A program made the translations under genes and the position numbers. From the IMG/VR virus record IMGVR_UViG_3300032236_001645, positions 1 through 64,000 of that record: a stretch of DNA of 64,000 nt; one strand, given 5' to 3'. This DNA comes from a virus. The notes beneath the pieces were generated by a model that ran no database searches, was not told the DNA's origin, and worked only from the letters and a program-made list of their open reading frames with translations. This document shows, in pieces, positions 1-4,716 of the stretch. The stretch's first letter is position 1, and every line of letters starts with the position of its first letter.

Positions 1-1503
1 AAAACCTTGTGATTGTTCCAACAATAAATCATATTGTAGTTGGTTTACTTTAATGTCATTTTCAATATCTTCAATTTCCTTTTTAATCTTCTCAATTTCA
101 TCTGTATGATCAACCTCATCTAATGCTCTATTACAAGTTGGACAAACCGTTCCCTCTTCTAATTGTTTTATTAATTTTTCCCTTTGTGTTTTTTCATATC
201 TCAAGGCAACATCTATACCTTGTATATCACCCATTTGTCCTTTTAATTCTTTATGTTGTTGTTCATTATAGAATTGTGAAGGTTCAACAACGTTAACTCC
301 ATCTGCATTTGTTTGACTGGTATTTCTTTGAACTGTTAAGTCATCAATCTCTCTTTGTAATAAAGTTGGATTAGTATTAATAAGTTCCTTATCAACATCA
401 TTATTTCTTTTTAAGAATACCTCATCTCTCTTTTTCTCTAATTTTGTTAAATCTTTTTTAAACTTTTCTAATTGAATGGTAAGTTTTTCAATTTCACTTT
501 CTGAATTAGTTATACTTTCTTTATATGCCTCGTTATCAGATTCTAAACTTACTTTGTTAAATGTATTGGAGACTAATTTTTTACTCCAGTCATTAAACAT
601 CTCTTTAGCAATTTCTTCTTTTGCTTTAAGACTTTCTAATCCCATGAACTTAGTTAATATCTGTCCACGTGCTGTTGGTTTGGATTCAATTAACTCTTCT
701 AAGTTATAACCTGTTGTTAAAATTGTTGATAAAAAATCTTCTTGTGTACCAATTGCTGAAGATATAAATGCTTCAGTTTCTCTTCTTTGTTCACCAGATA
801 AATTTACAATAGTTCCATCTTCACTCTTTTTATAGAATTCTAATTCATTCTTAACTGTATAATCACCTGACTTACCCATCTTACGAGAAGTCTTTCTTTC
901 AATTACATAATCGTCCCCATCAATTGTTATTTCACCACGAACACTTACTTCATTCTTATCAGTAAACCTGTTAAAGATTTCCCCGTTAGTTTTTGTTTTC
1001 GTTGTTGCATTAAAAAATAAGAACATAAGTAAATCAACTGAAGATGTCGATTTACCTCCAAAGTTTTTAGGTGTGGATTCAATTACCGTAATGCCGTCCA
1101 AATTTGTAAAATCAATAACATTATTATCACCAAATGATAAAAAGTTTGAGAATTCAACTTTCTTGATGTACCATTTGTTATATCTGACTTTATTTTCATT
1201 TAACTTATCTATCTGTGTGTTGACTTTATTATCTAATCTTTCCATCAACTCCTCTTTGATAACTATATTGTTATCTCTTAGAAAATCTTTCATCAGTTTC
1301 TTTTGATACTGATGATCTAAAATATTATCAGACGCTTCTAACGATTCTAAACGTGTTTGATTAACATTACTTAATGTCTTTGTAATTACTTGAACAGTCT
1401 TTGCATTATATTTTTTCTCAAAATAAGATTTCACCCTTCTGATTTTCTCAGGGGTGAAATTCTCGGGAACATCTTCCCATGTTACTTTTATAAATGGGTT
1501 CAT
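1..1503 (-). CDS. sbcC: Recombination nuclease ATPase subunit, SbcC/T4 gp46-like (3' part beyond window)
   Basis: About 500 N-terminal codons are present; the gene runs off the left edge. It is the SMC-like ATPase expected to work with the SbcD/gp47 subunit at 4685-5488 in end resection and recombination. Seen in the translation: the ABC-type N-terminal strand KKVEFSNFLSFG near residue 114, a P-loop ending FGGKST near 148-153, long charged coiled coil from about residue 240, and a zinc hook VCPTC around + strand 135-150. Two oddities: about 110 residues precede the usual first strand, and the P-loop lacks its first Gly (Pro at that place). The ATG at 1503 overlaps the TAA of the preceding gene (TAATG). 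A five-gene cassette separates it from its partner subunit. Confidence 0.88.
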   Translation of the reverse strand, partial: MNPFIKVTWEDVPENFTPEKIRRVKSYFEKKYNAKTVQVITKTLSNVNQTRLESLEASDNILDHQYQKKLMKDFLRDNNIVIKEELMERLDNKVNTQIDKLNENKVRYNKWYIKKVEFSNFLSFGDNNVIDFTNLDGITVIESTPKNFGGKSTSSVDLLMFLFFNATTKTKTNGEIFNRFTDKNEVSVRGEITIDGDDYVIERKTSRKMGKSGDYTVKNELEFYKKSEDGTIVNLSGEQRRETEAFISSAIGTQEDFLSTILTTGYNLEELIESKPTARGQILTKFMGLESLKAKEEIAKEMFNDWSKKLVSNTFNKVSLESDNEAYKESITNSESEIEKLTIQLEKFKKDLTKLEKKRDEVFLKRNNDVDKELINTNPTLLQREIDDLTVQRNTSQTNADGVNVVEPSQFYNEQQHKELKGQMGDIQGIDVALRYEKTQREKLIKQLEEGTVCPTCNRALDEVDHTDEIEKIKKEIEDIENDIKVNQLQYDLLLEQSQGF

Positions 1504-1805
1504 TATTTTCTATTTTCTTCAAACCATTCAATTATACTGTTTGTACCCCACACGATACCAGCGGAAAACATACCATCCATAAATAAACAAACGTACCATG
1601 GAATATTAAAATAATGATTAGTTAAACCACCTAACACAACTGATAGAAAAAATCCTACCCAAGTTGCGGTACATAATGTACAACTTATTAAATTCCCAAA
1701 AAACTTAGAATGTTTTTTTATCCATGTTCTTAGGTTTTCAAAAATGGAACCCCATACCAATATTGATGTCATCCCATAAGAAATCATCCAAAACATTAAA
1801 ATCAT
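1503..1805 (-). CDS. Small membrane protein with a CxxC motif
   Basis: 100 residues with three likely membrane segments: an N-terminal one (residues about 3-22), a central one (about 46-62) and a C-terminal one (about 70-90). A conserved-looking CTLCTATWVG patch precedes the second segment. CxxC followed by Trp-x-Gly occurs in small DUF1360-type membrane proteins of bacteria and phages, but this assignment is only a resemblance. The ATG overlaps the methyltransferase stop (ATGA) and its own TAA overlaps the start of the gp46-like gene, so it is translationally coupled in the operon. A holin-like role is possible but nothing else supports it. Function unknown. Confidence 0.7.
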   Translation of the reverse strand: MILMFWMISYGMTSILVWGSIFENLRTWIKKHSKFFGNLISCTLCTATWVGFFLSVVLGGLTNHYFNIPWYVCLFMDGMFSAGIVWGTNSIIEWFEENRK

Positions 1806-2764
1806 AAATTATTATTTTCTTCTTTATTATTATTTTTTTCTTGTTCAGCTATTTTTTTTAACTCAATATTTTTTAATCTTGTTTCATTTCTACTATCTAA
1901 CATTTGTTGTTGAGTAACAATATACTGATTCTTTGGATTTGGATTCTCTTCAGTATATGGTGAAACATTTTCAATTCTTTTTTTGGACAATTCAACATAT
2001 TCTTCATTTATGTCAATTCCAATATAATTTCTATTATTAACCTTAGACATTTTTAATGTTGTTCCACTTCCACACATTGGATCAAGTACAATATCTCCTT
2101 CATTCGTCCAACTCAAAATATGATCTTCAGCTAAACTCTCAGGGAAGATTGCCGGATGTTGATGTGCAAATTCATCTTTAGATGAAAATCCCGAACCTGT
2201 ATTGATATACCAAACATTATATCTTGTTCCAAATTCACCTATTTTAAATTTATCAACCTTTACTAATTCACCTTCTTTAGTTCTTTTAGATGGATCACCA
2301 AAATTTGTATAACCCGCCCAACGATTAGGTTTATCTTTAATAAGATTTATTGTTTTAGGTTTTCCTTTAGAAAACACAAACATATATTCAAATACTTGTG
2401 AATATCTTCCTGACTCAGGAAATGGTGGTCCGTTCTTATGATAAATCATTGTATCATAAAGTGTAAAACCAATGTCCATGAATTTTAACGCTTGTCTAAA
2501 TGATGAACCAGTTTCACCACCTTTCTTAACCTGATCATTAACAACCCATACTACAACACCACCAACTTTAGTTACACGAAATAATTCTGTCGCCATCTCA
2601 ACAAATGGAAAACTAAATCCACCTTCATAAGAAACACCATCTTTAATCTTGTCATTATACGTCCTTAGATTATCATAAGGTGGTGATGTAACTGTTAAAT
2701 CAATTGTTTTGTCTTCAATTGTTTTTAATACGTCAATTGAATTTCCTAAATGTATACTATTCAT
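1802..2764 (-). CDS. DNA methyltransferase, beta-class (N4-cytosine or N6-adenine)
   Basis: 320 residues with the two hallmark motifs of the N6/N4 amino-methyltransferase family in beta-class order: the catalytic TSPPY at residues 26-30 and the S-adenosylmethionine-binding DPMCGSGTT at 228-236. The SPPY form is commoner in N4-cytosine enzymes, though N6-adenine enzymes also use it. The region between (about 90-220) would hold the target-recognition part. The Glu/Lys/Asn-rich C-terminal tail (about 285-320) is low complexity. The ATG lies 8 nt inside the 3' end of the putative nuclease gene at 2757-3449, so the two are probably co-translated. This suggests a modification enzyme paired with a nuclease, or protection against host restriction. 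Confidence 0.9.
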   Translation of the reverse strand: MNSIHLGNSIDVLKTIEDKTIDLTVTSPPYDNLRTYNDKIKDGVSYEGGFSFPFVEMATELFRVTKVGGVVVWVVNDQVKKGGETGSSFRQALKFMDIGFTLYDTMIYHKNGPPFPESGRYSQVFEYMFVFSKGKPKTINLIKDKPNRWAGYTNFGDPSKRTKEGELVKVDKFKIGEFGTRYNVWYINTGSGFSSKDEFAHQHPAIFPESLAEDHILSWTNEGDIVLDPMCGSGTTLKMSKVNNRNYIGIDINEEYVELSKKRIENVSPYTEENPNPKNQYIVTQQQMLDSRNETRLKNIELKKIAEQEKNNNKEENNNL

Positions 2765-3449
2765 AAATTATTTCTTCATATTTAAAACTTCCTCCGTAGT
2801 TAATATCTCCACAAATTAAATTTTCATTATCGTTTAATCTTAAAGAAGATCTACTATTATTGTCTTTTGGAGTTCCTCTCCATGCGTCAGGTGAAAATGA
2901 TTTCATTGCAACCATCATACCTTTCAAATAATTTTTTCCAATTTCTATTGGAGTTTCTCTATCAACATTTAATGCTATGAATATATAGTTATCTACTTTA
3001 TTTGGTGAATGAGTACTACCCATAAATTGATCTTTACTTTGAGTTACTTTTATTTCAATTGCTATAATTTCACCATCAATTTCAAAAACAACATCAAATG
3101 CTAAATTTTGAAAATCGTAATCTTTAATTTCTTTATAAGATAAAATTCTAATCTTAGCCTCTTTATAATTTTCTAAAAATTTATTTGCGTCATATGAAAA
3201 ATAAGATTTAACTCCTTCATATGATAATCTTACAGTAGATACAACTGTTTGTTGTGAACTAGCATCTTCAATAGTCTTTACCCATTCATTAATTGATATT
3301 TTTTCTCTTTCTGCTCTTGGGAAAATAGTTAATGGTATTTCACGATTGACTGACTTAGCCATGTCATAAAATATCTTAGAGTTCTTTAAATGATATCTTA
3401 ATTTATCAAATAAATTATCAAATTCTAATATGTCAATCTCGTTAACCAT
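2757..3449 (-). CDS. Putative PD-(D/E)XK nuclease, restriction-endonuclease candidate
   Basis: 230 residues, not recognised as a named family. Residues 116-136 read as a PD-(D/E)XK active-site hairpin: Asp119 in a strand, then 12 residues, then Glu132-Ile-Lys134 in a second hydrophobic strand. A Lys/Gln-rich stretch and a predicted strand (DNYIFIAL) follow, as in many type II restriction enzymes. The gene overlaps the start of the methyltransferase by 8 nt, the usual layout of restriction-modification pairs. It has its own promoter-like box 5 nt before the ATG (3455-3464), behind a 28-nt repeat at 3479-3506. Other options are a Cas4/RecB-like phage nuclease or a degraded enzyme. The fold call is an inference from motif spacing. 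Confidence 0.62.
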   Translation of the reverse strand: MVNEIDILEFDNLFDKLRYHLKNSKIFYDMAKSVNREIPLTIFPRAEREKISINEWVKTIEDASSQQTVVSTVRLSYEGVKSYFSYDANKFLENYKEAKIRILSYKEIKDYDFQNLAFDVVFEIDGEIIAIEIKVTQSKDQFMGSTHSPNKVDNYIFIALNVDRETPIEIGKNYLKGMMVAMKSFSPDAWRGTPKDNNSRSSLRLNDNENLICGDINYGGSFKYEEIIYE

Positions 3450-3454
3450 TAAAA

Positions 3455-3464
3455 TAAAATATAC
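3455..3464 (-). promoter_or_regulatory. T-rich promoter-like box before the first nuclease gene
   Basis: The coding strand reads GTATATTTTA, ending 5 nt before the ATG at 3449. The same ten bases occur before the SSB gene (42083-42092), and a one-base variant occurs before the second nuclease gene (4130-4139). It resembles the Bacteroidetes -7 element TAnnTTTG. A start of transcription about 6 nt downstream would give a leaderless mRNA. Confidence 0.4.
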
Positions 3465-3478
3465 CTAAAAGAAACTGT

Positions 3479-3506
3479 AAAAAGAAATATGTTGCCGGAA
3501 ATTATT
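3479..3506 (-). repeat. 28-nt direct repeat, copy 1 (upstream of nuclease gene)
   Basis: Exactly identical to 4154-4181 over 28 nt; the core on the coding strand is TTTCCGGCAACATATTTC. It begins at the stop codon of the preceding gene and lies 27 nt before a T-rich promoter-like box, the same distance as in copy 2. The sequence between repeat and box is not conserved, so the repeat looks like an operator or activator site and not just a recent duplication of the whole leader. Confidence 0.75.
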
Positions 3507-4125
3507 AGGATTTAGAATCTTTTTTTGTCTTTAAAAACTTATACAATTTTTTAGAAATAAAAGATGAGAACTTTTCAATATCATCTCTAATAAAAGTAAC
3601 TTTTACATTAGGAGAATTACTATCAATACAACTAAAACTAAAGTCGGCAGTTCTAACATATTTTGATGGTTGATCACCATTAGGTAAATGTTTATTAAGT
3701 AACTTTTCAAAACGAGAACTTAATTCAGAATATGAAATACTAATTATGTAAAGTAATTGTCCATCAACAAACCCCGCACTATGAATGATTGGATTATCTT
3801 TAACGTATTTGTTATGTCTTACATATGTCAAATCAGAATAATTACCAGTACAATTAAGGGTTTTATTATTTGATGAATCTACGTTTTTAGGTTTTACTTC
3901 ATCTGAAGAACCTTCAGAATCGTATCCTCTTTTTTTGGAACTAATATTCAAACCTAACACATTACAAGTTATGTATTCTCTTAATGTTGATGAATTTTTA
4001 TCTGTTAGATATGAAACTAATAAATCCCAATAGTTATCACTTTCATTTAATGGAAATGATTCTCTATTAAGAGTACCTTTTGAATATTCGGTGATTAAAT
4101 TAATATGTTCCTTAGTTAAATTCAA
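3505..4125 (-). CDS. Putative nuclease-like protein of unknown family, TTG start
   Basis: 206 residues with no internal methionine. The frame is open from a TAA just upstream, and the only usable start is TTG at 4123-4125. A promoter-like box ends 4 nt before this TTG, which supports it. The stretch GYD(69)SEGSSDE(76)VK(78) has Asp-x6-Glu-x-Lys spacing seen in some PD-(D/E)XK enzymes, with Lys and Pro following as in several type II restriction endonucleases. The protein is hydrophilic with Ser/Asn-rich segments. The stop lies within the 28-nt repeat that precedes the next nuclease gene. The position between gp47 and the nuclease/methyltransferase pair suggests a shared cassette. It could equally be a specificity or accessory factor; the nuclease call is tentative. 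Confidence 0.5.
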   Translation of the reverse strand: MNLTKEHINLITEYSKGTLNRESFPLNESDNYWDLLVSYLTDKNSSTLREYITCNVLGLNISSKKRGYDSEGSSDEVKPKNVDSSNNKTLNCTGNYSDLTYVRHNKYVKDNPIIHSAGFVDGQLLYIISISYSELSSRFEKLLNKHLPNGDQPSKYVRTADFSFSCIDSNSPNVKVTFIRDDIEKFSSFISKKLYKFLKTKKDSKS

Positions 4126-4129
4126 TAAT

Positions 4130-4139
4130 TAAAATATAA
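4130..4139 (-). promoter_or_regulatory. T-rich promoter-like box before the TTG-start gene
   Basis: The coding strand reads TTATATTTTA, ending 4 nt before the TTG start at 4125. It sits 27 nt downstream of the CCGGCAAC core of repeat copy 2, the same spacing as at copy 1. Confidence 0.4.
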
Positions 4140-4153
4140 CTAAGGGATATGAC

Positions 4154-4181
4154 AAAAAGAAATATGTTGCCGGAAATTATT
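4154..4181 (-). repeat. 28-nt direct repeat, copy 2
   Basis: Identical to 3479-3506. It overlaps the TAA stop (4177-4179) of the repeat-rich gene and heads the leader of the TTG-start gene. A looser third relative containing TCCGGCAAC and a T-rich box 29 nt later is found at 7389-7438, where it overlaps the end of the resolvase gene. Confidence 0.75.
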
Positions 4182-4716
4182 CGTCGTATAGTGAACCCAT
4201 ATCACTATTTTTCATAAGTCTTCCCTTACCTAATTTATCTAATGATGTTGTAATTTTATTCAAATCATTAGATAGTCTTTCGTTTTCTTTTGTTAGTCTT
4301 TCAATTTCATCATTATTCACAACTTCTTTAACAACCTCAACTATTCTTTCTACAGGTACTTCTTTAATAACTTCCTTTGTAATAGTTTTATTTTTACCCT
4401 TTTTTTCAACTATTACTTCTTTAATAACTTCCACCGGCACTTCCACTTTAACCTCCTTAATAATTTCCCTAATCACTTCTACAGGTACTTCTACAATACG
4501 TTCCACAACCTTTTCCACCATAACTTCTTTAATGATTTCTTTAGGGACTTCAACATATTCAATAATTTTATTACCTGTTGGAGTTTCACCATATTTTAAA
4601 ATTGTAAAACCTCTATTGAAAGTTTCTTGTGCCTTTTTTTCAATATTTGTGATATTATTCATTTCACAAAATTGTGTGAATTCATTATCCAAGGTTAACG
4701 TGTACTTCTTGTTCAT
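4177..4716 (-). CDS. Repeat-rich protein with Val-Glu/Pro-Val-Glu periodicity
   Basis: 179 residues from the ATG at 4716 (a TTG two codons upstream gives 181). Residues 1-55 look globular. Residues about 56-145 are a quasi-repeat built from units such as EVPVEVIKEV, with alternating hydrophobic and charged residues and almost no other amino acids. Residues about 150-170 form a short coiled coil, followed by an acidic end. Similar Val/Glu/Pro/Lys repeats occur in extended or fibrous segments of surface and cytoskeletal-like proteins; the function here is unknown. The gene overlaps the 3' end of the gp47-like gene by 32 nt, so it is in the same operon. Confidence 0.7.
   Translation of the reverse strand: MNKKYTLTLDNEFTQFCEMNNITNIEKKAQETFNRGFTILKYGETPTGNKIIEYVEVPKEIIKEVMVEKVVERIVEVPVEVIREIIKEVKVEVPVEVIKEVIVEKKGKNKTITKEVIKEVPVERIVEVVKEVVNNDEIERLTKENERLSNDLNKITTSLDKLGKGRLMKNSDMGSLYDE

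What the first reader, a model, noticed from the sequence alone, without database searches (positions are those of the whole stretch)
1503..4716. Nuclease/methyltransferase cassette inserted between the two subunits of the gp46/gp47 nuclease
SbcD/gp47 and SbcC/gp46 genes are close together in T4 and SbcCD loci. Here five genes lie between them: a repeat-rich protein, two putative PD-(D/E)XK nucleases, a beta-class DNA methyltransferase and a small membrane protein. One nuclease overlaps the methyltransferase by 8 nt, as in a restriction-modification pair. A phage carrying a complete restriction-modification unit could use it to exclude rival phages or to degrade host DNA while its own genome is methylated.
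Basis: partly seen in the sequence, partly recalled or inferred. Interest (0 to 1): 0.8.

Follow-up and report, generated by a model that had tools for sequence, protein, structure and literature searches.

The report
Phage-borne type II restriction-modification pair
A bacterial virus carries its own restriction enzyme and the matching DNA-methylating enzyme next to its recombination nuclease genes, so it could cut host or rival DNA while sparing its own; the same gene pair recurs in many aquatic phages and its restriction enzyme belongs to a family that the standard libraries do not list.

Summary
On the - strand lie gp47, a repeat-rich protein, a nuclease (3505-4125), a second nuclease (2757-3449), a methyltransferase (1802-2764), a DUF1360 protein and gp46. 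The second nuclease and the methyltransferase overlap by 8 nt and form a type II restriction-modification pair. Homologs of both recur as neighbours in about 20 other loci, in several genome positions. The nuclease keeps D119/E132-x-K134 in all 16 aligned members, has low dN/dS (0.07-0.20), and its model matches EcoRV-branch restriction enzymes (NaeI Z 10.1). No searched family library holds it. The methyltransferase is beta-class with a TSPPY motif, so probably N4-cytosine. The first nuclease is a different family (phrog_3210), PvuII-like by model. It sits between two copies of a 52-nt intergenic element; a close relative has one copy and no gene. Corrections: the repeat-rich and DUF1360 genes are normal residents of the gp47-gp46 interval in relatives, so this is not a five-gene cassette. 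Related methyltransferases often stand alone or beside other nucleases, and one complete phage has the nuclease without a PF01555 methyltransferase. Cutting of host or rival DNA is inferred, and the target site is unknown. Virus-encoded R-M is known; this is a new member with an unlisted nuclease family.

The parts
2757..3449 (-). Predicted type II restriction endonuclease, 230 aa, PD-(D/E)XK fold of the EcoRV/NaeI branch; catalytic candidates D119, E132, K134
   Evidence: invariant D119, E132-I-K134, G144, T146, K151, G192 in 16 relatives; AF2 pLDDT 83.6, pTM 0.84; Foldseek top hits EcoRV, NaeI, SfiI, BglI; VIA Z 10.1 NaeI, 7.7 BglI, 7.2 SfiI/SwaI; no hit over any cut-off in Pfam, PHROGs, NCBIfam or PADLOC
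1802..2764 (-). Beta-class DNA methyltransferase, 320 aa, motif IV TSPPY then motif I DPMCGSGTT; probable N4-cytosine methyltransferase
   Evidence: PF01555 E 8e-42; PADLOC orphan-MTase model PDLC03714 E 3e-93; nearest solved chains are N4-cytosine methyltransferases 8s9m/8s9n, E 3e-16; only PF01555 match in the 79,750-base record
3505..4125 (-). Second predicted nuclease (phrog_3210 family), 206 aa, PvuII-like PD-(D/E)XK; candidates D69, E76, K78; recent gain or loss relative to L002; no cognate methyltransferase recognised in the record
   Evidence: phrog_3210 E 1.5e-16; invariant D69, E76, K78; AF2 pLDDT 71.6, active-site loop under 50; Foldseek ranks 1-10 all PvuII, best E 0.03; VIA Z 8.7 PvuII; homolog in L179 overlaps methyltransferases on both sides
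3452..3506 (-). Copy 1 of a duplicated intergenic element (promoter-like), upstream of the restriction gene
   Evidence: 55 nt, 84% identical to 4127-4181; single copy at the homologous junction in L002
4127..4181 (-). Copy 2 of the intergenic element, upstream of 3505-4125
1503..1805 (-). DUF1360-like small membrane protein; ordinary resident of the gp47-gp46 interval
   Evidence: PF07098 E 6e-5; homologs near gp46 in L004, L010, L012, L093
4177..4722 (-). Repeat-rich coiled-coil-like protein; ordinary companion of gp47
   Evidence: homolog directly after gp47 in L008, L012, L086, L093, 33-39% identity
4685..5488 (-). gp47/SbcD-like nuclease subunit
   Evidence: phrog_100 E 1e-20
1..1503 (-). 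gp46/SbcC-like subunit, truncated at the edge of the record
   Evidence: open frame 1-1503, 45-47% identical to 789-807 aa gp46-like proteins of relatives

Best explanation
2757-3449 and 1802-2764 are a phage-encoded type II restriction-modification pair, translated in coupled fashion, probably from the promoter-like element at 3452-3506 together with the DUF1360 gene and gp46. The methyltransferase (probably N4-cytosine) marks one sequence in the phage genome. The nuclease, an EcoRV-branch enzyme, cuts the same sequence where it is unmarked: in the host chromosome and in any unmarked co-infecting DNA. The ends so made would be substrates for the adjacent gp46/47 exonuclease. Shown: anatomy, recurrent pairing, active-site conservation, predicted fold, purifying selection. 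Inferred: shared target, cleavage activity, N4-cytosine, and the purpose (destruction of host DNA and/or exclusion of rivals).
For: Homologs of both genes are adjacent, nuclease first, overlapping by 4-23 nt (short gap in L010), in 19 of 80 methyltransferase loci and in further loci found from the nuclease side, at several positions: inside gp47-gp46 (window, L002), just after gp46 (L004, L008, L010, L012, L013, L086, L093), after a helicase-like gene (L039, L075, L100). D119/E132/K134 invariant. Model and fold matches to NaeI, EcoRV, BglI, SfiI, SwaI. Nuclease dN/dS 0.07-0.20 in six comparisons; identities of the two proteins covary over 21 loci (Spearman 0.83; relatedness not removed). Methyltransferase closest to N4-cytosine structures. 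L002 carries a second R-M-like pair in the same interval.
Against: 61 of 80 methyltransferase relatives lack the nuclease as neighbour; among the nearest, L006, L007 and L011 have an unrelated 178-aa protein and L016 an IceA-type pair in that place, and PADLOC's best model is an orphan one. Synechococcus phage DSL-LC02, complete, has the nuclease without any PF01555 methyltransferase. Foldseek E-values are marginal (1e-3 at best) and no sequence profile links the nuclease to a characterised enzyme. No target site could be inferred. No activity data.
Confidence: 0.82

Rival explanations
1. The methyltransferase is a counter-defence gene that shields phage DNA from host restriction, and the nuclease beside it is a passenger or a weak remnant without an important role.
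For: Most methyltransferase relatives lack this nuclease; the slot upstream of it is variable in otherwise collinear phages (L008 versus L006, L011, L016); best PADLOC model is an orphan methyltransferase.
Against: The nuclease is intact with low dN/dS and an invariant active site wherever it occurs; overlapping adjacency is kept in distant phages.
Confidence: 0.13
2. The unit serves superinfection exclusion only: it cuts co-infecting phages, while host DNA is spared because the host is methylated at the same site.
For: Marseilleviridae carry a complete R-M system that does not degrade host DNA (PMC7253447); the nuclease slot is variable, as expected of weapons against rivals.
Against: Needs a host carrying the same methylation; host unknown. 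The pair adjoins gp46/47 in one group of phages, which fits host DNA processing equally well.
Confidence: 0.25
3. 3505-4125 is a free-standing homing-type endonuclease that spreads by inserting at the duplicated intergenic element, unrelated to restriction.
For: Gene present or absent between copies of a 52-nt element; no cognate methyltransferase recognised in the record.
Against: Model resembles PvuII and other restriction enzymes; in L179 the homolog is joined by 4-nt overlaps to two methyltransferases; the repeat may be a promoter carried with the gene.
Confidence: 0.25

Closest known systems
EcoRV-branch type II restriction endonucleases (EcoRV, NaeI, BglI, SfiI, SwaI, HincII)
   Same: Predicted fold, D-(x)n-E-x-K active site, methyltransferase neighbour
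   Different: No detectable sequence similarity; target unknown; found here in phage contigs
Complete R-M systems of chloroviruses and Marseilleviridae (PMC7253447)
   Same: Virus-encoded methyltransferase next to a restriction enzyme
   Different: Viruses of eukaryotes; here tailed phages, and the pair adjoins recombination nuclease genes
Orphan beta-class methyltransferases of T4-like phages and cyanophages (phrog_67, PADLOC PDLC03714)
   Same: Methyltransferase of the same family, 46-56% identical
   Different: Here an overlapping nuclease gene is present
PvuII endonuclease and the PvuII-like domains of NhoI/Eco15I
   Same: Predicted fold of 3505-4125
   Different: Different sequence family (phrog_3210); no own methyltransferase recognised in this record
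HHPV4I, modification-dependent restriction enzyme of an archaeal virus (PMC10101028)
   Same: Virus-borne restriction enzyme thought to exclude other viruses
   Different: SRA-wH-HNH enzyme that cuts methylated DNA; here PD-(D/E)XK with a methyltransferase

Membership tests
Type II restriction-modification system | Nuclease and methyltransferase genes adjacent and co-inherited | tested here: met
   8-nt overlap; adjacency in 19 of 80 MTase loci and in further nuclease-found loci; exceptions L099 (unlinked) and L102 (no PF01555 MTase)
Type II restriction-modification system | Nuclease has an intact restriction-enzyme active site | tested here: met
   invariant D119, E132-x-K134 in 16 relatives
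Type II restriction-modification system | Both enzymes act on the same DNA sequence and methylation blocks cleavage | not testable with these tools
   needs enzyme assays; palindrome avoidance gave no site
EcoRV/NaeI branch of PD-(D/E)XK endonucleases | Fold | tested here: met
   model pLDDT 83.6; VIA Z 10.1 NaeI over 156 residues, best Foldseek hits EcoRV and NaeI; predicted model, marginal Foldseek E
EcoRV/NaeI branch of PD-(D/E)XK endonucleases | Sequence homology to a characterised member | tested here: inconclusive
   no hit of the profile in PDB sequences, no Pfam hit over cut-off
N4-cytosine DNA methyltransferases | S-P-P-Y motif IV in beta order with closest relatives N4-cytosine enzymes | tested here: met
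   TSPPYDNLRTY before DPMCGSGTT; best chains 8s9m/8s9n
N4-cytosine DNA methyltransferases | Product is N4-methylcytosine | not testable with these tools
   needs methylome or mass spectrometry
PvuII-like nucleases (3505-4125) | Fold and D-E-x-K motif | tested here: inconclusive
   all ten best Foldseek hits PvuII but best E 0.03, Z 8.7, active-site loop pLDDT under 50; motif residues invariant

The most novel reading that the evidence does not exclude
A phage-specific lineage of R-M systems in which the methyltransferase is the more stable gene and the nuclease slot beside it is exchanged (EcoRV-branch enzyme, 178-aa protein, IceA pair), used to cut unmarked host DNA and feed the breaks to the neighbouring gp46/47 nuclease.
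Probability: 0.25. Interest if true: 0.75.

Novelty: new member of a known kind. Interest (0 to 1): 0.5.

Why it matters
It shows that complete type II R-M units recur in uncultivated aquatic phages related to T4-like phages, including cyanophages, and gives a restriction-enzyme family absent from Pfam, NCBIfam, PADLOC and PHROGs, so annotation pipelines will call it hypothetical and its methyltransferase an orphan. If active it would be a phage route to self/non-self discrimination during host takeover and a source of new enzymes.

Tried and rejected
Five-gene cassette: rejected, because the repeat-rich and DUF1360 genes are in the gp47-gp46 interval of relatives where the R-M pair lies elsewhere. 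Target site from palindrome avoidance in the 80-kb record and in relatives: CATG, GATC and CTAG avoided, nothing specific to nuclease carriers. Relatives of the nuclease in cellular genomes: none by direct scan; the 188-kb Nonlabens xiamenensis contig with a distant relative (L222; profile comparison of A1 with A8, probability 91%, E 1e-6) has helicase-like and oxygenase-like neighbours and is probably a T4-like phage in the assembly. Bacterial relatives of the methyltransferase pair with another nuclease family (PADLOC PDLC03511) that does not match ours. The two nucleases of the window are not detectably related to each other. No near DNA match among phage records. A cytosine-C5 methyltransferase in the record: none. 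Weak mSLOG Pfam hit of the nuclease (E 0.007, below cut-off) taken as chance.

Full report
Setting. The window is bases 1-64,000 of a 79,750-base virus record. No near DNA match exists among phage records. Flanking genes are those of a T4-like phage: gp47/SbcD-like (phrog_100), an exonuclease (phrog_298), a DNA primase (phrog_47) and a RuvC-like resolvase (phrog_159).

Anatomy. All genes of interest are on the - strand. In order of transcription: gp47 5488-4685, repeat-rich protein 4722-4177, nuclease 4125-3505, nuclease 3449-2757, methyltransferase 2764-1802, DUF1360-like protein 1805-1503, gp46 from 1503 to the edge. Neighbouring genes overlap except on either side of 3505-4125, where two copies of a 52-55-nt element stand (84% identical). 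The nuclease stop and methyltransferase start share ATGAATAG.

The restriction pair. The 230-aa protein matches nothing above cut-off in Pfam, PHROGs, NCBIfam or PADLOC. From the methyltransferase (80 relatives fetched) a homologous nuclease was found immediately upstream in 19 of 80 loci, and a scan with the nuclease alignment added more. Overlaps are 4, 8, 17 or 23 nt; L010 has a short gap. Sixteen aligned members share invariant D119, E132, I133, K134, G144, T146, K151 and G192. The AlphaFold2 model (pLDDT 83.6, pTM 0.84) has restriction endonucleases as its best matches: EcoRV and NaeI by Foldseek (E about 1e-3 to 1e-2), and NaeI Z 10.1, BglI 7.7, SfiI and SwaI 7.2, HincII 6.1, EcoRV 5.9 by VIA-align. 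NaeI, BglI, HincII and EcoRV belong to the beta branch of PD-(D/E)XK enzymes (PMC4081073). Nuclease dN/dS is 0.07-0.20 and methyltransferase 0.03-0.19 in six comparisons, before that script stopped on a division by zero. The methyltransferase is PF01555 with TSPPY ahead of DPMCGSGTT; nearest solved chains are N4-cytosine enzymes. That SPPY marks N4-cytosine enzymes is established knowledge, not tested here.

Where the pair sits. Inside gp47-gp46 in the window and L002; directly after gp46 in L004, L008, L010, L012, L013, L086 and L093; after a helicase-like gene in L039, L075 and L100. In L012 and L093 the gp47-gp46 interval holds just the repeat-rich and DUF1360 genes (with one small frame in L093), so these belong to the interval. 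In L006, L007 and L011 the methyltransferase (about 90% identical to that of L008) is preceded by an unrelated 178-aa protein, and in L016 by an IceA-type pair (PF05315 E 2.5e-36). The methyltransferase thus outlives changes of its neighbour. Synechococcus phage DSL-LC02 (complete) has the nuclease without any PF01555 methyltransferase; the L099 record has both, unlinked.

The second nuclease. 3505-4125 belongs to phrog_3210, spread in cyanophages. D69, E76 and K78 are invariant. The model (pLDDT 71.6, weak at the active site) matches PvuII in all ten best Foldseek rows and at VIA Z 8.7, then Eco15I, NhoI and DpnI. In L179 its homolog is joined by 4-nt overlaps to a methyltransferase on each side; in L193-L195 the downstream one follows directly. 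In the window no such methyltransferase is recognised, though the record may be incomplete. L002 lacks the gene and has one copy of the flanking element: a recent gain or loss.

Mechanism. Most likely a working type II system: own DNA methylated, unmarked DNA cut, ends passed to gp46/47. In T4, gp46/47 takes part in host DNA degradation (own knowledge). An enzyme made after infection meets the host chromosome first, so host DNA is the default target unless the host shares the methylation. Viral precedents go both ways: chlorovirus enzymes degrade host DNA, the Marseilleviridae system does not (PMC7253447). None of these functional steps is shown here.

Novelty. Virus-encoded R-M is known, and jumbo phages are noted to encode R-M systems (PMC7824862). 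New here are a nuclease family absent from the libraries searched, its recurrence in aquatic phages, and the variable slot beside the methyltransferase. REBASE and HHpred were not available, so prior listing there cannot be excluded.

Noticed in passing
L002 7985-9751: Second R-M-like pair between DUF1360 and gp46: a phrog_6927 protein (its L075 homolog hits PADLOC REase_II, E 3e-10) and a type II methyltransferase (PDLC03280 E 1e-51).
   Followed up: partly
L075 6798-8059: The same record carries two R-M pairs: the EcoRV-branch pair and a phrog_6927 nuclease overlapping a methyltransferase; phrog_6927, listed as unknown, is probably a restriction enzyme.
   Followed up: partly
window 7435, 4172, 3497 (- strand): TCCGGCAAC followed about 30 nt on by a GGTATATTT-like stretch at three intergenic sites, possibly a phage promoter class.
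   Followed up: partly
L021 and L022: GATC and CATG are wholly absent over 22 kb (0 seen against 61 and 55 expected), strong restriction avoidance.
   Followed up: no
L222 (NZ_RMVE01000006.1, Nonlabens xiamenensis): 188-kb contig with helicase-like and oxygenase-like neighbours resembles a T4-like phage genome inside a bacterial assembly.
   Followed up: partly
L006, L007, L011 5464-6000: 178-aa protein with a KYREIKK stretch occupies the nuclease slot before the methyltransferase; may be another unlisted nuclease.
   Followed up: no
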